Shown here: positions 1,655-26,880 of the stretch, piece after piece | Layout of the letters: each line of letters starts with the position of its first letter | Numbering within the stretch: the first letter of the stretch is position 1 | Translations under genes and position numbers: made by a program | Notes under the pieces: model-generated | Told to the model about the DNA's origin: nothing | The model's input: only the letters and a program-made list of their open reading frames with translations | Databases searched by the model: none | Source of the DNA: a virus | DNA: 28,109 bases | Virus record (IMG/VR): IMGVR_UViG_3300005882_000015 | Location: 1 to 28,109 of that record | Direction: 5' to 3' (one strand)

Positions 1655-3185
1655 CCATCTCCTCCATCACGTCCGCAAACATCTTGCCCACCTCATCTTC
1701 CAGTGTATCACCCAGCGCTTTGCCTGCGCCGCCCTTGGATTGAGCGGGGGTGTAGACAAGGCCTTCTATCCAAGCAAAGCACACCGCGTCCCACAGGTCG
1801 GGGGACGCCATGCCCTCCCACTCCTTGCTGTGCTTGGGCGGCACGCGGATGCGCCCCTTGTCGGTGAAGGTCTTGGGAATGCGGCTCGATTGCGACAGCA
1901 TGGCGTTGCGGTGCTCGCCGGTGAGGATCGACAGCCGGCCCTCCTTGGCGGCGCGCGCGGCCTGGTGCATGGCCTGCGCGCGAAGGTTCAGGTAGCGCTC
2001 CTTGTTCCTGTTCTGGAAGCACGGATTACCCCAGTTGATGCGATGCAGCGGTTTACCCATGTCCTCCAGGTCCTGGCAGACGTTGATGCCCAGGCCACCG
2101 GAGTCGACGGCATAGGTCACACCGTCATAGGGGTCGCCCTGCTCGGCCACGGCGCCGGCAAAGACGTTGGCGCGCACGTTGTTGGTCACCACCGGCACGG
2201 TCACGATCTCCACGCGCCGCGCATCGGGTCCACGCTCGCCATAGCCGATGACCCGCGCCACGACGATGGTCGACTTGTCGCGCAGCCCCTCGCCGCTGGC
2301 GATATCGGACAGCACCACCCAGCCATAGGGCTCGTCGTCGCCGATGATGCGGCCGCGGCGATACATGGCCTCGGCCACGGGCAGATTCATCATGTGCTTG
2401 CCCGACTCCTGTGGGAACTGCCCCAGCAGGCGCACGCGGCGCTCGTCCTCGTCGTAGCTGTCCCACAGCTCCTTGAGGGCCTGGTCGCTGACCAGCGGTG
2501 ACTCCAGCGAGGAGAACACCAGCGGCGTCCAGTCGCCGCCGTTGAGATTGCTCAGGTCGTGATGCGTCCGGTAGAAGAACCCCGAGTTGCGGGTCGGCTG
2601 CGAGGTCAGCAGCATGCGGTTGTGTTCTTCGGTCAGGGCGCCGCGCAGCGTGGTCAGCACCGCGTCGGGCAGCGTCGACGCCTCGTCGCCGATGATCATC
2701 AGCCACTCACCGTGGCGGCCGGCCATCTTGTTGGCGGTCTTCTCGTTGGCGGTCTTGGACTCGACGAACCAGGTGTCGGGGAAGCCGATGATGCGCATCT
2801 GGCCGTTGGCCAGGATCTCGATATGGTCGGCGATCCAGCCGTAGGGCCCCTTGCGGATGCGCTCGACGGCCATGCCGATTTCCTTCCACAGCGTGGCCTT
2901 GAGCTGGGCCATGTCGTTGGCGGTCAGCAGGGTGATCGACTGCGGGTAGCAGAGCATGTGCCACAGCACGATGGTGGCCAGTGCCGTGGTCTTGCCCGTG
3001 CCGTGACCGGACGCCACCGACACCATGGAGCGCGACGGCGCCACGCTGTTGTAGAGCGTGATCTGCTGAGGCGTGGGCGGCAGCTCGACCACATCGATGG
3101 CGAAGCCCACCAGGTCACCGGCGAAGTCGTCGCTGAACTCCTCCCAGCGCGGATCCTCGTGCAGCAACGTGCGCTTGCTAGCCAT
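1647..3185 (-). CDS. terL: Terminase large subunit (ATPase and nuclease of DNA packaging)
   Basis: A 512-residue packaging motor protein that drives DNA into the prohead and cuts it. Walker A is GHGTGKTT at 60-67 with K65; Walker B is LMIIGDE at 162-168 with the catalytic E168; a coupling-like motif SQPTR lies at 195-199. The RuvC-like nuclease half shows acidic residues D294 (VLSDIASGEG), D361 (AVDSGGLG) and D463/D466 (SPDLWDA). Length is normal for the family. It overlaps the small-subunit gene by 8 bases (ATGGCTAG) and the HNH gene by 8 bases at the other end. Confidence 0.96.
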   Translation of the reverse strand: MASKRTLLHEDPRWEEFSDDFAGDLVGFAIDVVELPPTPQQITLYNSVAPSRSMVSVASGHGTGKTTALATIVLWHMLCYPQSITLLTANDMAQLKATLWKEIGMAVERIRKGPYGWIADHIEILANGQMRIIGFPDTWFVESKTANEKTANKMAGRHGEWLMIIGDEASTLPDAVLTTLRGALTEEHNRMLLTSQPTRNSGFFYRTHHDLSNLNGGDWTPLVFSSLESPLVSDQALKELWDSYDEDERRVRLLGQFPQESGKHMMNLPVAEAMYRRGRIIGDDEPYGWVVLSDIASGEGLRDKSTIVVARVIGYGERGPDARRVEIVTVPVVTNNVRANVFAGAVAEQGDPYDGVTYAVDSGGLGINVCQDLEDMGKPLHRINWGNPCFQNRNKERYLNLRAQAMHQAARAAKEGRLSILTGEHRNAMLSQSSRIPKTFTDKGRIRVPPKHSKEWEGMASPDLWDAVCFAWIEGLVYTPAQSKGGAGKALGDTLEDEVGKMFADVMEEMDG

Positions 3186-4161
3186 CGTCGACCTCGCCTG
3201 TCGCCCCGTCGATGATCAGCCCCAGGCGATCGGCACGGCTGCGCATCTCGCGCTCGACCTGCGCCGCCTTGGCCAGGGCGGCCTCGATGCGCTCCCGACG
3301 GGCTTCGCGGTCCACCAGTGCAATGCTGGGCTTCTCCTCGACCTCCACCTTGTCCTTCCACAGCTCGGGCTGGCGGTTCTTCAGCCAGAACTTGGCCGCC
3401 TCGGTATCCGGCGGGACGATCTCGGTGTAGGGCACGACGACCGGCTGCCCCTGGTACTGGAACACCTTCACCGCCTGGTGCGTGTAGCCGGTGGCCTTCT
3501 TGTACAGCGAGCGCGCCACGTTGGCGTCGGCATCGCCGCGCCCCTGCTCCATGGCGGCGCGGAACTCGGGATGGGCGGACATCCAGTCATAGACGGTCTG
3601 CTCGGTCACCTCCAGCAGGCTGGCGACGTGGGCGGGCGTCGCGCCCAGCAGGGCATGCTTGTAGGCCAGCCGGGCGTACTGGCGGCGGTACTTGGTGCGG
3701 CCCGAGGCGTCGGTCTCGTAGATCTCGTGCAGCGGGCTGTCGCCGAAGTCGTCCTCGAGCGAAATCGTGGTCACGCGCGTTAGGGTCAAGCCATGAAGTG
3801 GTGCGCCCTGCCCCTCCTCCCCCTCATCGAACGGTATGGAATCGGCCTCCTCCAGCGGCACCGCCTTGTCTGCGAGCTCCGGCGGCAGCTCCTCCAGCTC
3901 TTCGACCGGGGTTTCCGGTTTCTGGCTTGGTTTCCGGTTTCCGGTTTTCGCCTTGGGTTTCTGGGTTTTCGGTTTCCGGGCCGGTTTCACCCTGGCCTTG
4001 CCGCTGCCCTTGCACCATTCCTCCTTGAGGGCGCGCTTGCGCACGGCAGGGCCCGACACGTCGAGCCCCAGTTCCCGAATCAGCCAGGCATACCCGTCGC
4101 GGGAATCCGCCTCCCAGGTTTCTCTCGCCTTCTGCCACTGCTGCTCCGTCAACTTCGCCAT
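3178..4161 (-). CDS. terS: Terminase small subunit (packaging-site recognition)
   Basis: A 327-residue protein, longer than usual for small terminases. An N-terminal helical segment (about 5-50) resembles a first DNA-binding helix-turn-helix, then a Lys/Pro-rich linker (about 54-85) and an acidic stretch (about 86-118). A second helix-turn-helix lies at 175-200 (HVASLLEVTEQTVYDWM), followed by a helical C-terminus with KFWLKNRQPELWKDK, typical of small terminases. It sits directly upstream of terL with an 8-base overlap. The Lys/Pro linker is encoded by a striking repeat described separately. Confidence 0.87.
   Translation of the reverse strand: MAKLTEQQWQKARETWEADSRDGYAWLIRELGLDVSGPAVRKRALKEEWCKGSGKARVKPARKPKTQKPKAKTGNRKPSQKPETPVEELEELPPELADKAVPLEEADSIPFDEGEEGQGAPLHGLTLTRVTTISLEDDFGDSPLHEIYETDASGRTKYRRQYARLAYKHALLGATPAHVASLLEVTEQTVYDWMSAHPEFRAAMEQGRGDADANVARSLYKKATGYTHQAVKVFQYQGQPVVVPYTEIVPPDTEAAKFWLKNRQPELWKDKVEVEEKPSIALVDREARRERIEAALAKAAQVEREMRSRADRLGLIIDGATGEVDDG
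3910..3988. repeat. Array of GGTTTC repeats inside the small-terminase gene
   Basis: Seven exact GGTTTC hexamers start at 3910, 3917, 3929, 3936, 3956, 3971 and 3983, with two GGTTTTC variants between them. On the coding strand these read GAAACC and encode the Lys/Pro/Glu linker. In several phages the packaging start site lies within the small-terminase gene, so this is a candidate recognition array. It could also be only a low-complexity codon pattern. Confidence 0.5.
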
Positions 4162-7650: not shown

Positions 7651-8640
7651 TCAGTCCCTCATCCAGTCGGGAAGGTTGTCCATGTCGGTCGGCGTGTAGG
7701 TGCCCTGCGGCTGCGGCTGGGCGAAGCCTTTGCGGCCGTCCAGGCGGCCAGGCTGGCGTGCCGCCGGGGGAATCCACTCGTTGTCGAACTCGGCGTTGGC
7801 GCCGAAGAACCGCTTGGCCTGCATCACGAACTCGGAGGCCTCGTCCCCCTTGGCGCGAACGTAGGCCGCATAGCGCTCGACGGCGGCCAGCATGTCGGCA
7901 GGGTCCACGCCCTCGGCGATACGGGCATTCCAGCACTCGAAGGCCGGTTTCTTGGGGTTGCTCCCGGCTCGCTTCGGGTAGGCCGACCAGGCGCGCTCGA
8001 ACACCTCGGTGTACTCAGGGCTGCGGCGCGCCTTGGTTTTCGCGGCGGTTTTCGGCTCGGGCTTGGGTTCGGCAGGCGGCGATGGCGTCAGCTCGAGCTC
8101 AGGCTGGTCGATCTCGGATGCACCACCCTCCGAACGAAGTGAGGAGGGGTTGTCTTTCCTGTCTTTAGAAGGGAGGTCAGATTGACCTGACTGAGATAGG
8201 TCAGATTGACCTGACTGAGGCTGTTTTGATTGCGGCGTTGGCGGGGTGTACTTGCCCGCTTGAAGCTCCCAGGTTTCCGCATGTTTGTTCAGGGAAACCG
8301 GAGAACGGCTGCCACCATGGCGAAGCAAGACCTTCTTCTCGATCAGGGATGCCATCACCTTGGCGCACGTCGATGCGTGGATGCCGGTCAGCTTGGCCAG
8401 CAGACCGCCGGTGACGCGCGCCTGCTTGCGATTCCAGCCATACGTCAGGCGAATGATGGCCATCACGACACGCATTTCGCGCAGCGTGAACGGGGCCGCC
8501 ATGACCTGCTCCAGGAGCTCGTTCGCGATCCTCGTGTATCCATCCTCCACTTGGGGCCCCTTTGGCGTTTCTGCGGGCGCCTGCGGCTCCTCTGGCGGCT
8601 GCTCATGGAAGCGCTCGGGGAACTTCAGCACGTTGCTCAT
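7651..8640 (-). CDS. Lambda O-like phage replication initiator
   Basis: A 329-residue protein whose N-terminal domain (about 33-130) matches the phage replication protein O family: DGYTRIANELLEQVMAAPFTLREMRVVMAIIRLTYGWNRK, then a winged-helix segment and SRSPVSLNKHAETW. The middle (about 135-205) is a disordered Gln/Ser/Pro/Lys linker with a duplicated QSGQSDL peptide, encoded by the iteron repeats. The C-terminal domain (about 210-300; RAWSAYPKRAGSNPKKPAF) would contact the helicase loader. It is followed at once by the dnaC-like gene, as O precedes P in lambda. Confidence 0.9.
   Translation of the reverse strand: MSNVLKFPERFHEQPPEEPQAPAETPKGPQVEDGYTRIANELLEQVMAAPFTLREMRVVMAIIRLTYGWNRKQARVTGGLLAKLTGIHASTCAKVMASLIEKKVLLRHGGSRSPVSLNKHAETWELQAGKYTPPTPQSKQPQSGQSDLSQSGQSDLPSKDRKDNPSSLRSEGGASEIDQPELELTPSPPAEPKPEPKTAAKTKARRSPEYTEVFERAWSAYPKRAGSNPKKPAFECWNARIAEGVDPADMLAAVERYAAYVRAKGDEASEFVMQAKRFFGANAEFDNEWIPPAARQPGRLDGRKGFAQPQPQGTYTPTDMDNLPDWMRD
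8174..8219. repeat. Two palindromic iterons inside the initiator gene; candidate replication origin
   Basis: Two identical 22-base copies lie at 8174-8195 and 8198-8219, with a 24-base period (exactly 8 codons). Each contains a perfect dyad, AGGTCA-GAT-TGACCT, followed by GACTGAG. The flank at 8150-8172 is relatively AT-rich for this DNA. In lambda the origin is a set of palindromic iterons within gene O, bound by O protein, so this is the likely origin here. Confidence 0.72.
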
Positions 8641-19275: not shown

Positions 19276-19475
19276 CCGGCCAGCCGCACCCCGATTCACC
19301 GAACGCCAAGTGGGCGCGGCACGGCTACCAGGTCGAGCGCATCCCGCGCCGCGGGAGCGGCGGCCATCACCGCATCATCCGCGACCCCGAGGGGCGCGTC
19401 GTGCTTCAGGACGCCGGCCATGCCGGCGAACTGGAGTGGATCAAGGCCAACCTGGAGGACGGCACGCATGATTGA
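19272..19475 (+). CDS. Hypothetical protein, 67 residues
   Basis: Coupled to the preceding tiny gene by ATGA and overlapping the methyltransferase gene by 8 bases. The protein has a basic middle (WARHGYQVERIPRRGSGGHHRIIRD) and an acidic end (GELEWIKANLEDGTHD), with a predicted beta hairpin. It may be a partner or regulator of the methyltransferase, judging only from position. Confidence 0.6.
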   Translation: MTGQPHPDSPNAKWARHGYQVERIPRRGSGGHHRIIRDPEGRVVLQDAGHAGELEWIKANLEDGTHD

Positions 19476-21168
19476 GCAGCGCGAGATTCGGCACTTCCAC
19501 CTGTTCTGCGGGCTGGGAGGCGGAGCCAAGGGCTTCAACCGCGGGAACGCGCGCGTCGGCAACATGGAGGCGCGCTTCCGCTGCATCGGCGGAATCGACG
19601 TCGACCCTGGCGCCATCGCCGACTTCCAGCGCCTGTCCGGCGCGCCCGGTACCGCGCTCGACCTGTTCGATCGTGACCAGTACCGAGCCTTCCACGGCGC
19701 GGAGCCGCCGGCGGACTGGCGCGAGGCCACGCCCGCCGACATTCAGGCGGCAGCCGGCGGCGAGACGCCGAACATCGTCTTCCTGAGTGCGCCCTGCAAG
19801 GGGTTCAGCGGCCTGCTGTCGCAGTCGCGCAGCACCACGCCCCGCTACCAGGCGCTCAACCGCCTGACGCTTCGCGGCATGTGGCTGACCATGGAAGCGT
19901 TCGCCGACGACCCGCCGGAGCTGGTGATCTTCGAAAACGTCCCGAGGATCGCCAACCGAGGCCGACCTCTCCTCGATCGCATCGTGGCCATGCTCGAGCA
20001 CTACGGCTACCACGTCGCGGAGACCACGCATGATTGCGGCGAAATAGGCGGCCTGGCGCAGTCCCGCAAGCGCTTCCTGCTGGTCGCCAGGCACGCCGAG
20101 AAGGTGCCGCCCTTCCTCTACGAGCCGGTTTGCCGCCCGCTGCGCGCCGTCGGCGACGTGCTGGGCGACATGCCGCTGCCCGGCGACGAGCTGGCCGGCG
20201 CCATGCACCGTATCCCGCGCCTGCAATGGAAGACGTGGGTCAGGCTCGCCTTCGTGGAGGCCGGCAGCGACTGGCGGTCGCTGAACCGGCTGGCAGTCGA
20301 AGACGGCTTTCTCAAGGACTACCTGCTGGTACCCGAGGGGCGTAACAACGGCTACCTGGGCGTGCACGACTGGCGAGAAGCGGCCGGCACTGTGTCCGGC
20401 GCCAGTCGCCCGGGGAACGGCAAGTTCTCCGTAGCAGACCCTCGCTTCAACCAGTCGGCCAAGTGGAAGGACGGCCAGGCTTACGGCGTCCGCCGCTGGG
20501 ACGGCCCCACTGGCGCCATCACCGGGCAGAAGTCGCCCGGGCAAGGCGCTTTCGCCGTCGCGGATCCTCGCCGGGAAGGGCCGTCATTCGGCAAGTACAT
20601 GGTCACCCGCTGGGAGGAGCGCAGCGGCACCGTCATATCCGGCAGCACCACCGGGCAGGGCGCCTATGCCGTCGCCGACCCACGGCCCGGCCTGAGCCGC
20701 GGCAAGGGTGACCACTACCTCACCGCCGGACACTACGGCGTCGTGCCCTGGCGCGCGCCATGCGGCGCCGTCTCGGCATCGGCGGGCCACGACAACGGCA
20801 GCTGGTCGGTGGCCGACCCGCGCCTGCCCGAGCCCAACGACAAGCTGGTGGCCGTGATCCGGTCGCTGGACGGCTGCTGGCACCGGCCCTTCACGACGCT
20901 CGAGCTCGCCGCGCTGCAAGGCCTCGTCGATCCCTGCGAGCACCTGGAGCTGGAGGGGCTGAACGACAGCGCCTGGCGAGAGCGCATCGGAAACGCGGTG
21001 CCGGCGCCGGCCGCCGAGGCCATTGCCGGCGTCATGGGCACCACCCTGCTGCTGGCGTGGAGCGGCGAGACGTTCGCCCTGGGCTCGACGCCGATATGGG
21101 TGCGCCAGGTCGCCGCCAGCCTTTCGCTTCACCGCCCCGAGAAACCCGACCCCAAGGCCGCCCACTGA
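19468..21168 (+). CDS. DNA cytosine-5 methyltransferase with four internal repeats
   Basis: A 566-residue C5 methyltransferase. Motif I is FCGLGGG (13-19); motif IV has the catalytic C110 (SAPCKGFSG); motif VI is ENV (156-158); motif VIII QSRKR (198-202); motif IX TTLELAALQG; motif X GNAVP (508-512). Between VIII and IX, at about 300-455, four imperfect repeats end in VADPR (322-326, 364-368, 402-406, 448-452), each preceded by W-x-GTVSG-like and PGxGxF-like sequence. This is where the target-recognition domain lies. It probably protects phage DNA from host restriction. The recognition sequence cannot be read from the protein. Confidence 0.95.
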   Translation: MIEQREIRHFHLFCGLGGGAKGFNRGNARVGNMEARFRCIGGIDVDPGAIADFQRLSGAPGTALDLFDRDQYRAFHGAEPPADWREATPADIQAAAGGETPNIVFLSAPCKGFSGLLSQSRSTTPRYQALNRLTLRGMWLTMEAFADDPPELVIFENVPRIANRGRPLLDRIVAMLEHYGYHVAETTHDCGEIGGLAQSRKRFLLVARHAEKVPPFLYEPVCRPLRAVGDVLGDMPLPGDELAGAMHRIPRLQWKTWVRLAFVEAGSDWRSLNRLAVEDGFLKDYLLVPEGRNNGYLGVHDWREAAGTVSGASRPGNGKFSVADPRFNQSAKWKDGQAYGVRRWDGPTGAITGQKSPGQGAFAVADPRREGPSFGKYMVTRWEERSGTVISGSTTGQGAYAVADPRPGLSRGKGDHYLTAGHYGVVPWRAPCGAVSASAGHDNGSWSVADPRLPEPNDKLVAVIRSLDGCWHRPFTTLELAALQGLVDPCEHLELEGLNDSAWRERIGNAVPAPAAEAIAGVMGTTLLLAWSGETFALGSTPIWVRQVAASLSLHRPEKPDPKAAH

Positions 21169-21194: not shown

Positions 21195-22037
21195 ATGCAC
21201 TGCCCTGTCATGCGTTACCACGGCGGCAAGTGGCGCATCGCCAGCTGGGTGATATCGCACTTCCCGCGCCACCAGGTCTACGTCGAGCCCTTCGGCGGCG
21301 CCGCCGGCGTGTTGATGCAGAAGCCGCCGGTATCAGCCGAGGTCTACAACGACCTGGACGGCGAGATCGTCAACGTGTTCCGCGTGCTGCGCGACCCGGC
21401 GAGCGCCGAACGCCTGGCCGAGCTCTGCCGCTTCACGCCTTACGCCCGCGCCGAGTTCGATCTATCGCAAGATCCGGCCGACGATCCCATTGAACAGGCC
21501 CGGCGCACCCTGCTGCGCGCCTGGGCCAGCTTCGGCTCGGCCGGCGCCACGCGCGGCAACTCGGGGATGCGCACCTTCACGCGCCCGGATGGCGTCTATC
21601 TGGGTGTGGCGCACGCCTGGGCCCGTGTCGCCGATGCGATACCCGAGTTCGCCGACCGCTTCCGCAACGTGGTGATCGAAAGCCGCCCGGCCATCGACGT
21701 CATGACGCAGCACGACAGCCGGGAGACGCTGCACTACGTCGACCCGCCCTACCTGCCGGAGACGCGCAGTCAGGGCAGCAGCCGCTACTACCGCCACGAG
21801 ATGAGCGTCGAGGAGCACGAGACGCTGCTGGAGTCCGTCAGACACCTGCAGGGCTTCGTGGTGATCAGCGGCTACGACTCCACGCTCTACAACAACCGCC
21901 TACCCGGCTGGATGCGCGTGACGCTGCCCACGTCCGGATCCAGTCGCTTCGGCAGCGTGAAGCGCACCGAATGCCTGTGGCTGTCGCCGCGAGCAGCAGA
22001 CCAACAACGCCAGCGCGACATGTTCGCCACCGCCTAA
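21195..22037 (+). CDS. Dam-type (D12 class) adenine-N6 DNA methyltransferase
   Basis: A 280-residue methyltransferase with an RYHGGKWRIASWVI opening (7-20), the cofactor motif VEPFGGAAGV (30-39), YNDLDGEIVNVFRVLR, and the catalytic DPPY at 183-186. The alpha order of motifs (cofactor site before DPPY) and length match the D12 class, which commonly modifies GATC. GGAGG lies 7-8 bases before the ATG. With the cytosine enzyme it gives the phage two DNA-modifying activities side by side. Confidence 0.95.
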   Translation: MHCPVMRYHGGKWRIASWVISHFPRHQVYVEPFGGAAGVLMQKPPVSAEVYNDLDGEIVNVFRVLRDPASAERLAELCRFTPYARAEFDLSQDPADDPIEQARRTLLRAWASFGSAGATRGNSGMRTFTRPDGVYLGVAHAWARVADAIPEFADRFRNVVIESRPAIDVMTQHDSRETLHYVDPPYLPETRSQGSSRYYRHEMSVEEHETLLESVRHLQGFVVISGYDSTLYNNRLPGWMRVTLPTSGSSRFGSVKRTECLWLSPRAADQQRQRDMFATA

Positions 22038-22082: not shown

Positions 22083-23240
22083 ATGTGGTTCAAGAACCTT
22101 CGTCTGTACCGCCTGCCCGCCGCCGGCAGCATCGCCGTTGAAGCCCTGGCCGAAGCCATGGGCCGCTTCGCCACCCGCGACATGGGCGGCCAAGAAGCCA
22201 AGCATCTGGGCTGGGTGCCACCAGCCGGCCGCAAGAGCGAGACCCTGGTCCATGCCATTCAGGGTCAGTTCCTGCTGACCATGCAGCGCCAGGAGCGAAT
22301 CCTGCCCTCGTCCGTGGTGAAGGAGGAGGTGGAGGCCCGCTGCGAGGAGATCGAGACCGTTCGCGGCGGCCCGGTACCGCGCGCGGAGAAGATGAGCATC
22401 AAGGAGCAGGTCTACGAGGAGTTCCTGCCCCGCGCCTTCGTGCGCAGCCATCGGGTCGACCTCTGGTGGGACATGGCCGGCGGCATGATCGCGGTCAACA
22501 CCTCGTCGGCGAAGCGTGCCGAGGAGGCACTGGACTTGCTGCGCGCCACGCTGGGCAGCCTGAAGGTGGTGCCGGTCGCTACTCACTCCCTGCCCATGAG
22601 AGTCATGACGCACTGGCTGCAAGACCCGAGCCTTCGCCCGTCCTGGCTGGAGGTCGGCGACAGCGTGCAGCTCCGTGAGCAAGGCGACGACGGCAAGGTG
22701 ACGGCCAAGCATGTCGACCTCGACACCGACGACATGCAGCGGCTGCTGGAGTCCGGCCGCCAGGCCGCCCAGCTGAGCATCACACTCGACGAGCGCGTAT
22801 CGCTGACGCTGACCGACGGCCTGACGCTCAAGGGCCTGCGCTTCTCCGACGCCCTGCTGGACGAGGCCAGCCAGGCCGACGATGGCGACGACGCCATCAT
22901 TCGGATGGAAACCGACTTCATCCTGATGGCCAACGCCCTGCGCGACGTCATCAAGCTGCTGCTGGTCGGCCTGGGTGGCGAGGCCGTGCCCGAGCTCAAG
23001 AGCATGGAGGAGGCGGCACCGACGCCCGCCTCGCCCGGTACCGACGAGCCCGACCCGCTGCTGGGCGAGGTGCGCGGCTTCGTGATCGAGAGCCGGCGAG
23101 CGTCGATATCGGCCGTACAGCGGCACTTCAAGATTGGCTACAACCGCGCGGCGCGCCTCATCGAGGACCTGGAGCGCCAGGGCGTGGTTTCCCCCATGGA
23201 CAACAGCGGTTCCCGCAAAGTGCTCAAGGAGGCGGCATGA
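22083..23240 (+). CDS. rdgC: RdgC-like recombination protein fused to an FtsK-gamma winged helix
   Basis: A 385-residue protein. The first 300 or so residues match RdgC ([75 protein letters not shown]). RdgC forms DNA-encircling dimers and modulates RecA. After a Glu/Pro-rich linker (about 300-322), residues 324-385 match the FtsK gamma domain: [20 protein letters not shown] then [20 protein letters not shown]. In FtsK this domain reads KOPS sequences and activates XerD. Standard RdgC has about 303 residues and no such domain. One continuous frame encodes both parts. Confidence 0.92.
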
Positions 23241-25400: not shown

Positions 25401-25531
25401 GAACCCGCCTCAAGAATTCCCCTGTTCCCGATATCCGGGCCGACTGGCGACCGATATCCAGCGCCTGGGCGGGCATGGGGCTCGCCACGGTGGGCATCCC
25501 CCTTCAAGTCTTTGAGGAGAACCAATCATGA
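25397..25531 (+). CDS. Small hypothetical protein, 44 residues
   Basis: Joined to the upstream and downstream genes by 4-base ATGA overlaps. The protein (MRTRLKNSPVPDIRADWRPI, then AWAGMGLATVGIPLQVFEEN) has a short hydrophobic middle but no clear membrane helix. The GAGGAG in its 3' end serves as the binding site for the next gene. Function unknown. Confidence 0.5.
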   Translation: MRTRLKNSPVPDIRADWRPISSAWAGMGLATVGIPLQVFEENQS

Positions 25532-26880
25532 ATGAGACAGCACCGATACAGCGGCTTCTAGCGGTCGAGCAAGAGAACGAGCGACTGAAGGCGGAGAACG
25601 AGCGCCTGGCCAACGTCTCGCCCCACGGTCATGTTCAGAACACCCGGGCGCTGCTGGAGATGGAGGAGAAGCTGGCAGCCGCTACCGACTGCGCAGAAGA
25701 TCGCGCTCGCATGCTGGGCATGATCGCGGAACGCCTGGGTGTGGCCGGCGAGCCCCACCAGGGCCGGGGCAAGCGCATCCTGGAGGCGCTGGACGCCCTC
25801 ATCGAGCGCAGTCGGCGCATGGAGGAGGCTATCGACTTCGCCTGCGCGCCTGACATGTGGGAGGAGCGCTCCGACCTGGGCGGCGAGGTCTACGAGTACA
25901 AGTACCTGAAGTGGTATGTCGACGTGCTGCAGGAGGCGTTGACGCCCCACGAGCTGCACCCCGATGACGCTATGGTGGAGGCCGCGGCCCTGGCCATGCG
26001 CCGGAAGCTGGCCGCTAAGCGCAAGGAGGGGCGCGGCGGCTGGGAGGAGATGTCACTGGGCGCGCTGAACAGCATGCTGGTCAACCACGTCGCCAAGGGC
26101 GACCCGGTGGACGTGCTCAACTTCGCCGCCATGATCCATGCCCTTGGTGGACGCACCAGCCTCGATCGCGTGGCCCCGAGACAGCCAGGCGAGGCACCGC
26201 GCTGGTACGTCACCGACGACAAGCCGTGGTTCGCCTACTGCCCTGACCAGGGCCTGATGGCGTTCGGTACCGAAGCCGAGGCCGTCGAGCAGGCCACCGA
26301 CTTCATCGACAGCTGGCTGGATGGCGACACCGGCTGGGACGAGCAAGTCGGCCAGGTGTTCGTCGGGCGAGCCACGCAGATCAGCAGTCAGGTAGATCGC
26401 GTCGACCGTCCGGACGAGGGTCAACTGGATGAAGACGGTTGCGACCCCGAAGGCTACCACTGGGGCGACTTCGAGTACGTGTGCAACTACAAGGTGCAGC
26501 CGGTGGTCAGCGACGCCGCCAAGGCGTGGGCGGCCACCAGCGGCGGCGACACGTCCGGCTACGACCTGGTGGCCCACATGAAGCGCCAGATGGCGTTCTC
26601 GACTCGCGCCTTTGGGCCCGGAGACCGCCAGGCCGGCGTGGTCGACCATATCCGCAAGGAGTTGAAGGAGATCGAGGCCGCCCCGCGCGACCTCGAGGAG
26701 TGGGTCGACGTCGTATTGCTCGCCCTGGATGGCGCTTGGCGTGCCGGCCATTCCGCCGAGCAGGTGGCGGCTGGGCTGGACGCGAAGCTCACCAGGAACG
26801 AAGGGCGCGACTGGCCGGACTGGCGAACTGCCGACCGGACCAAGGCCATCGAGCACAACCGGCAAAGCGAGGAAGCATGA
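25528..26880 (+). CDS. Multidomain protein ending in a MazG-like dATP/dGTP pyrophosphohydrolase
   Basis: A 450-residue protein. Residues about 8-60 are a coiled coil (VEQENERLKAENERLANV). Residues about 140-207 form a domain common in phage pyrophosphohydrolases (ALNSMLVNHVAKGDPVDVLNFAAMIHALG). Residues about 355-432 match the DUF550 MazG-type family: FGPGDRQAGVVDHIRKELKE, then DLEEWVDVVLLALDGAWRAG and RNEGRDWPDWR. Acidic metal ligands would be E378/E381 and E390/E391/D394. The enzyme would cleave dATP/dGTP to monophosphate and pyrophosphate. The start has GAGGAG about 8 bases upstream. Confidence 0.88.
   Translation: MNETAPIQRLLAVEQENERLKAENERLANVSPHGHVQNTRALLEMEEKLAAATDCAEDRARMLGMIAERLGVAGEPHQGRGKRILEALDALIERSRRMEEAIDFACAPDMWEERSDLGGEVYEYKYLKWYVDVLQEALTPHELHPDDAMVEAAALAMRRKLAAKRKEGRGGWEEMSLGALNSMLVNHVAKGDPVDVLNFAAMIHALGGRTSLDRVAPRQPGEAPRWYVTDDKPWFAYCPDQGLMAFGTEAEAVEQATDFIDSWLDGDTGWDEQVGQVFVGRATQISSQVDRVDRPDEGQLDEDGCDPEGYHWGDFEYVCNYKVQPVVSDAAKAWAATSGGDTSGYDLVAHMKRQMAFSTRAFGPGDRQAGVVDHIRKELKEIEAAPRDLEEWVDVVLLALDGAWRAGHSAEQVAAGLDAKLTRNEGRDWPDWRTADRTKAIEHNRQSEEA

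What the first reader, a model, noticed from the sequence alone, without database searches (positions are those of the whole stretch)
19468..21168. Cytosine methyltransferase whose recognition region is built from four VADPR repeats
Seen: four imperfect 38-46 residue units, each ending VADPR, fill residues 300-455 between motifs VIII and IX. Known: this is the site of the target-recognition domain in C5 enzymes, and multispecific phage enzymes carry several recognition modules there. Inference: the repeats may give several target sequences or a repeated blade-like fold.
Basis: partly seen in the sequence, partly recalled or inferred. Interest (0 to 1): 0.56.

Follow-up and report, generated by a model that had tools for sequence, protein, structure and literature searches.

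The report
Methyltransferase with swappable DNA-reading modules
A phage enzyme that marks cytosines in DNA carries four short, different, apparently exchangeable recognition modules in a row, and its relatives carry two to nine, so one enzyme can probably protect phage DNA at several different sequences at once.

Summary
Window 19468-21165 encodes a 566-aa orphan cytosine-C5 DNA methyltransferase (P0001). Between motifs VIII and IX it has four repeats ending VADPR (VADPR starts at aa 322, 364, 402, 448), more than chance gives. Relatives in phages, prophages and conjugative plasmids show that the repeats are modular. Complete arrays hold 2 to 9 units. Unit number changes at least 45 times on a tree of 104 relatives. 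In close relatives single units are inserted or replaced whole, each with its upstream spacer, while neighbouring units stay nearly identical. Units inside one protein are never alike (0 of 808 pairs at 70% identity), fewer than permutations give. The last unit plus C-terminus aligns with the DNA-reading part of M.HaeIII. I conclude that each 36-46-aa module is a small target-recognition domain, so the enzyme probably methylates up to four targets. This works like the multispecific Bacillus phage methyltransferases, but the family is separate, uses short repeated modules and reaches nine. Not shown: any target, any methylation, or the fold (AlphaFold2 gave no confident model of the repeats). 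The inference of several targets is supported by comparison only; the "blade-like fold" is untested.

The parts
19454..19458 (+). GGAGG ribosome-binding-like sequence before the ATG at 19468
   Evidence: printed sequence
19468..21168 (+). C5 cytosine methyltransferase gene, 566 aa (P0001)
   Evidence: PF00145, 60.2 bits, cut-off 22; phrog_116
19504..19524 (+). motif I, FCGLGGG (aa 13-19)
   Evidence: glycines conserved in A1
19792..19797 (+). motif IV catalytic Pro-Cys (P109 C110)
   Evidence: invariant in 33 of 33 rows
19933..19941 (+). motif VI ENV (aa 156-158)
   Evidence: invariant in 33 of 33 rows
20059..20076 (+). motif VIII QSRKRF (aa 198-203)
20215..20283 (+). family-specific constant stem PRLQWKTWVRLAFVEAGSDWRSL (aa 250-272) before the first unit
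   Evidence: mostly invariant in 33 rows
20356..20445 (+). unit core 1 (aa 297-326)
   Evidence: unit HMM 53.6 bits
20446..20571 (+). module 2: spacer plus core (aa 327-368; core 339-368)
   Evidence: unit HMM 55.5 bits; module limits from swap and insertion pairs
20572..20685 (+). module 3: spacer plus core (aa 369-406; core 377-406)
   Evidence: unit HMM 50.8 bits
20686..20823 (+). module 4: spacer plus core (aa 407-452; core 423-452), joined to motif IX; its profile with the C-terminus matches M.HaeIII
   Evidence: unit HMM 45.8 bits
20893..20922 (+). motif IX TTLELAALQG (aa 476-485)
20989..21003 (+). motif X GNAVP (aa 508-512)
   Evidence: G508, N509, V511, P512 invariant in 33 rows

Best explanation
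P0001 is a phage-encoded orphan C5 methyltransferase with one catalytic core and a tandem array of four exchangeable target-recognition modules. Each module is a spacer plus a core of the form YGVxxWxxPxGTV-loop-GxxSVADPR. Inferred mechanism: one module at a time docks over the active-site cleft and presents its variable spacer and loop to the DNA, as the two recognition loops of M.HaeIII and M.HhaI do, and the shared catalytic domain flips and methylates the cytosine. Each module therefore gives its own short target, so the enzyme would protect phage DNA against up to four restriction specificities. Shown: the modular sequence anatomy, the varying number, whole-module exchange, and non-redundancy within arrays. 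Inferred: DNA contact, separate targets, and the anti-restriction role.
For: Unit number is 2 to 9 in apparently complete arrays; 108 distinct arrays: 5 units 40, 4 units 32, 6 units 19, 7 units 9, 3 units 4, 2 units 3, 9 units 1, a few cut by contig ends. A tree of 104 cores needs at least 45 changes of unit number (shuffled mean 53.9). Of 191 pairs with core identity of at least 85%, unit number differs in 98, and 136 have a unit under 55% identical to every unit of the partner; in the same 191 pairs a 30-aa window of the core falls under 55% in only 2. L012/L047: DNA identity falls to 30-40% over one unit and is 97% just after it. In 3 swap pairs the upstream spacer changes with the core (mean identity 0.28) and the downstream spacer stays (0.93); 9 insertion pairs fit the same module limits. 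0 of 808 within-array unit pairs reach 70% identity; position-restricted permutations give 2.5 to 12.2 such pairs per clade on average and reach the observed 0 in 0 to 45 of 1000; no two units of one array share the same 6-residue loop (0 of 808 against 854 of 72,728 between arrays). The last unit plus C-terminus matches M.HaeIII (E 4e-4 over 177,635 PDB sequences), unit VxxWxEPAxTVxxS onto HaeIII 228-243; the unit profile alone scores 10.9 bits there against a best of 7.0 in 500 shuffles. Loop positions are variable and frame positions (V, W, G, ADPR) conserved. No restriction enzyme among 10 window proteins scanned with PADLOC.
Against: No target or activity is measured. AlphaFold2 gives no confident fold for the repeats in P0001 or in a two-unit relative. 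The unit profile does not detect the recognition domains of the multispecific SPbeta enzyme, and profile comparison with it covers only the catalytic part, at low probability (1.9). The HaeIII stretch tested had been chosen because it matched, and the E-value includes motifs IX and X. Swap pairs are few (3, two of which share L047), and 4 of the 9 insertion pairs share L008. Under the strictest permutation (position and array size both fixed) the excess of dissimilarity is weak (permutations at or below the observed count of pairs at 70%: 19 and 45 of 1000; mean identity in the larger clade not low, 618 of 1000).
Confidence: 0.74

Rival explanations
1. Only one module (probably the last, next to motif IX, or the first) reads DNA; the others are silent spare cassettes or spacers, a reservoir from which new specificities can be moved into the working place.
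For: Only one recognition surface can lie over the active site at a time (established C5 mechanism, recalled). Silent 'pseudo' recognition domains are recalled from Bacillus phage enzymes. The last unit is placed like the HaeIII segment.
Against: The frame residues stay conserved in units at all positions, arrays are non-redundant, and interior units are kept in nearly all relatives, which idle cassettes would not need.
Confidence: 0.13
2. The array reads one long or degenerate target together, unit by unit, like a repeat-based DNA-binding protein.
For: Regular tandem repeats with variable positions in a fixed frame.
Against: Unit number changes between near-identical relatives, whole units are replaced singly, near-duplicate neighbours typical of expanding repeats are absent, and the last unit plus C-terminus resembles the recognition part of M.HaeIII.
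Confidence: 0.07
3. The repeats mainly shape a scaffold (for example binding a partner or packing into a blade-like fold) and the enzyme has relaxed specificity such as 'one C in CC'.
For: Other large phage m5C enzymes are reported with relaxed specificity (PMC5537653, section 3.4 read), and one of them, ARM81ld p31, also shows tandem PxPT-type stretches by eye.
Against: The variable positions cluster in the loop rather than on the frame. Relaxed specificity as reported there may itself be several targets.
Confidence: 0.06

Closest known systems
Multispecific C5 methyltransferases of Bacillus phages (M.SPbeta, M.SPR, M.phi3T, M.H2I and relatives)
   Same: One C5 core on temperate phages with several recognition domains in tandem giving several targets (PMC12707154 passage; PMC8936443 passage). 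By eye SPbeta mtbP has two PxxTL/TV elements.
   Different: The unit profile finds nothing significant in SPbeta and the proteins align only over the catalytic part. Here modules share a strong common frame (VADPR, W, GTV), recur 2 to 9 times and sit in Pseudomonadota and Bacillota elements including conjugative plasmids.
M.HaeIII (PDB 3ubt, 1dct)
   Same: C5 fold; its segment 228-243 VRQWNEPAFTVQASGR aligns with one unit, followed by motifs IX and X.
   Different: One recognition element and one target (GGCC, recalled); no repeats.
Large phage m5C methyltransferases with relaxed specificity (phi2LM21 p23, Paracoccus JCM7686_0772, ARM81ld p31)
   Same: Large phage C5 enzymes; ARM81ld p31 shows tandem TRD-like stretches by eye.
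   Different: Different repeat sequence; the unit profile gives only 1.7 bits at best. The Paracoccus enzymes are reported as modifying at least one C in CC (PMC5537653, section 3.4).
Type I HsdS specificity subunits with exchangeable target-recognition domains
   Same: Specificity evolves by swapping recognition domains (general knowledge; passages of PMC12707154).
   Different: Unrelated protein and adenine methylation; two domains read one split target.

Membership tests
C5 cytosine DNA methyltransferase (PF00145) | Pfam profile above curated cut-off | tested here: met
   60.2 bits, cut-off 22; TIGR00675 below its own cut-off (42.7 of 100.65)
C5 cytosine DNA methyltransferase (PF00145) | Motifs I, IV (PC), VI (ENV), VIII (QxRxR), IX, X (GNxVP) in order | tested here: met
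C5 cytosine DNA methyltransferase (PF00145) | Methylates cytosine in DNA | not testable with these tools
   no assay
Multispecific tandem-TRD C5 methyltransferases (Bacillus phage type) | Several recognition-type modules in tandem between motifs VIII and IX of one C5 core | tested here: met
   (sequence only)
Multispecific tandem-TRD C5 methyltransferases (Bacillus phage type) | Each module gives its own methylation target | not testable with these tools
   needs methylome and module deletions
Multispecific tandem-TRD C5 methyltransferases (Bacillus phage type) | Homology of the recognition modules to those of M.SPbeta | tested here: not met
   unit HMM gives no hit in SPbeta mtbP; hhalign of A1 with it covers aa 6-215 only, probability 1.9. 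A resemblance by eye remains. I therefore do not file it in that family, only as working alike
Multispecific tandem-TRD C5 methyltransferases (Bacillus phage type) | Orphan: no partner restriction endonuclease next to it | tested here: met
   PADLOC scan of 10 window proteins shows only methyltransferase-type models on the two methyltransferases; not all window ORFs were scanned
M.HaeIII-type recognition element | Sequence match of a unit to HaeIII TRD segment followed by motif IX | tested here: met
   E 4e-4 (profile of last unit plus C-terminus), 10.9 bits for unit alone, stretch preselected
M.HaeIII-type recognition element | Same fold | tested here: inconclusive
   AlphaFold2 pLDDT under 50 in the repeats; Foldseek matches come with a repeat region that is not modelled

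The most novel reading that the evidence does not exclude
A separate, widespread family of mobile-element methyltransferases uses a short (36-46 aa) self-contained recognition cassette with a fixed frame. Cassettes are gained, lost and shuffled one at a time, selected to differ from each other, and stacked up to nine on one catalytic core, so that one protein covers up to nine targets. This would be a natural combinatorial system for cytosine-methylation specificity and a library of interchangeable readers.
Probability: 0.6. Interest if true: 0.74.

Novelty: new variant of a known kind. Interest (0 to 1): 0.55.

Why it matters
If true, one enzyme's targets could be read from its modules. The family would offer 195 different six-residue loops among the units of 78 non-redundant arrays as a natural training set for the unsolved question of how C5 recognition loops encode sequence. 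It would also explain how phages and conjugative plasmids of Pseudomonas, Halomonas and relatives pass several restriction systems with one gene, and give a ready scaffold for building methyltransferases with chosen targets.

Tried and rejected
Structure: AlphaFold2 on P0001 with 33 rows and on the two-unit relative L122 with 50 rows both modelled the catalytic domain well and left the repeats unmodelled; Foldseek therefore speaks only for the C5 core. Direct PDB search with P0001 alone gave only chance hits.

Membership in the SPbeta type by sequence: not supported.

A conserved pairing with the adenine methyltransferase next door: a relative lies within the fetched flank in 20 of 129 loci (11 downstream on the same strand), so it is not a fixed pair.

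Distant transfer of near-identical units between remote relatives: only 1 unit pair at 90% identity among 2591 protein pairs with core under 60%, so exchange is mainly seen among relatives. Free permutation mixed positions and could mislead; it was repeated with position-restricted permutations.

Literature: no paper on this family was found in searches (open-access library only; listings and abstract starts seen; REBASE and subscription papers not searched). Trautner 1996 (PMC450048) was not held. Passages only were read of PMC3526280, PMC12707154, PMC8936443, PMC11347163, PMC5867850, PMC11780129 and PMC13076061; section 3.4 in full of PMC5537653.

Rows dropped: 5 of 109 distinct arrays lacked a long enough core or C-terminus; 78 of 104 kept for redundancy tests. 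Unit counts include loci cut by contig ends or with short reading frames (for example L058, L059, L063, L065, L112); they are not used for the statement of 2 to 9.

Full report
What is there. The window is a 28,109-base virus record. Its 19468-21168 reading frame encodes a 566-aa protein (P0001) that passes the Pfam C5 methylase cut-off (60.2 bits against 22) and matches phrog_116, DNA methyltransferase. Its nearest relatives are a 100% copy on another IMG/VR contig (L003) and a 97% copy in Halomonas salipaludis (L081), so the host is probably a halomonad (inference). Scans of the neighbouring genes show a temperate phage replication and recombination region: RecE-like and RecT-like proteins, SSB, Dam-like methyltransferase, RdgC, CI-like repressor, antirepressor. 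No restriction enzyme showed in 10 proteins scanned with PADLOC.

The repeats. VADPR stands at aa 322, 364, 402 and 448 and nowhere else in six frames of the window; no 5-mer reached four copies in 2000 shuffles. A profile started from the four units and iterated over 130 proteins (129 loci plus the query) finds units in all but one, a locus with a short reading frame. The consensus over 533 units of 109 distinct arrays is YGVxxWxxPxGTVxG, then a variable loop, then GxxSVADPR. D28 and R30 of the profile never vary where present (531 of 531 and 520 of 520); positions 4, 5 and 16-20 are among the most variable, with position 24. That is a fixed frame carrying a variable loop.

How the family varies. 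The unit count in the distinct arrays is 2 to 9: 40 arrays with five, 32 with four, 19 with six, 9 with seven, 4 with three, 3 with two, 1 with nine, including a few arrays cut by contig ends. Two paralogues in one assembly, Desulfoscipio geothermicus, have five (L116) and three (L118). On a maximum-likelihood tree of 104 N-terminal cores the number of units changes at least 45 times, near the 53.9 of shuffled labels (quick search, many weak branches).

Units move as cassettes. Among 191 pairs of proteins whose cores are at least 85% identical, unit number differs in 98 and 136 have a unit under 55% identical to every unit of the partner. The same pairs have a 30-aa core window under 55% in only 2 cases. 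These pairs are not independent. At DNA level L012 and L047 fall to 30-40% identity over one unit and are 97% identical just after it; L071 has 114 extra bases, one unit, against L055 and a swapped neighbour; L110 carries one extra unit against L040. Where one interior unit is swapped (3 pairs, two sharing L047) the spacer before it changes too (mean identity 0.28) and the spacer after it does not (0.93). Nine insertion pairs from six proteins that bear the extra unit fit the same limits. The exchanged module is therefore the spacer plus the core up to VADPR, 36-46 aa.

Arrays avoid repeats of the same module. In 78 arrays with cores under 90% identical, none of 808 within-array unit pairs reaches 70% identity; for interior units alone 14.0 and 4.5 are expected in the two clades when units are permuted freely. 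With permutation limited to the same place from the end or from the start the expectation is 4.4 to 12.2 per clade, and at most 7 of 1000 permutations reach 0. With place and array size both fixed it is 3.4 and 2.5, reached in 19 and 45 of 1000. No two units of one array share the same six loop residues (0 of 808), against 854 of 72,728 between arrays. Tandem repeats that serve structure usually show recent duplicates; modules that each serve a separate target should not be duplicated.

What a module resembles. A profile of the last unit plus the C-terminus (42 of 75 available sequences) finds M.HaeIII first in the PDB (E 4e-4), with the unit on HaeIII 228-243, VRQWNEPAFTVQASGR, then motifs IX and X. 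The unit profile alone gives 10.9 bits there, above 500 shuffles (best 7.0), on a stretch chosen because it had matched. From recalled structures that segment of M.HaeIII carries the second recognition loop (Arg243) and begins next to the first (Arg225, Arg227); the spacer before each unit would then be the first loop. I take this as the reason why spacer and core travel together; it is inference.

Mechanism. Shown here: one intact C5 core by motif, several module copies, whole-module exchange, and avoidance of duplicates. Inferred: modules take turns at the catalytic cleft and each reads its own target, so P0001 has up to four targets and protects phage DNA from several restriction systems. 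Occurrence in 37 of 50,697 phage records (31 from Pseudomonas by name) and 168 of 72,556 plasmid records, 66 of them typed conjugative, including pWW0, fits an anti-restriction role for DNA that enters new hosts. Not shown: structure, activity, targets.

Comparison with the known. Tandem recognition domains giving several targets are known from Bacillus phages (PMC12707154 and PMC8936443, passages read). So the principle is not new. This family is not demonstrably the same by sequence: its unit profile misses SPbeta mtbP and the profile comparison covers only the catalytic part. What differs is the short common frame, 2 to 9 modules, and the clear natural record of single-module exchange. I found no paper on it in ten searches of an open-access library. 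A second large phage type, ARM81ld p31, shows other tandem stretches by eye and its kind is reported with relaxed specificity (PMC5537653, section 3.4 read in full), which might be multispecificity seen with a limited enzyme panel (speculation).

Verdict. Observation confirmed; interpretation of several targets likely (0.74) but untested; fold unknown. New variant of a known kind, interest 0.55.

Noticed in passing
window 22083-23237 (+): One reading frame joins RdgC (PF04381, aa 1-300) to an FtsK gamma winged-helix domain (PF09397, aa 322-381), an unusual-looking fusion of a recombination protein with a DNA-motif-reading domain.
   Followed up: no
window 21198-22034 (+): D12/Dam-type adenine methyltransferase directly downstream of the C5 enzyme; a relative lies in the fetched flank of only 20 of 129 related loci.
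   Followed up: partly
window 25528-26877 (+): 450-aa protein with a C-terminal dATP/dGTP pyrophosphohydrolase domain (PF04447, aa 355-444) and a long N-terminal part matching small phage families of unknown function.
   Followed up: no
L134:25673-27337 (-): Aeromonas phage phiARM81ld C5 methyltransferase p31 shows about five tandem DxPxPTxTTxDHxxLV...KYYG-like stretches by eye, a second kind of repeated recognition region.
   Followed up: partly
window 20215-20283 (+), aa 250-272: Nearly invariant stem PRLQWKTWxRxAxxxAGxDWRxL before the first unit; DNMT1 has GSDWRDL at the matching place in a weak profile match.
   Followed up: no
window 8174-8219: Perfect 24-bp direct repeat, 1.9 copies (AGGTCAGATTGACCTGACTGAGAT), with an inverted GGTCAgaTTGACC inside; possible operator, not tested.
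   Followed up: no
window 3910-3979: About ten degenerate copies of the heptamer GGTTTCC inside the minus-strand ORF 3178-4161.
   Followed up: no
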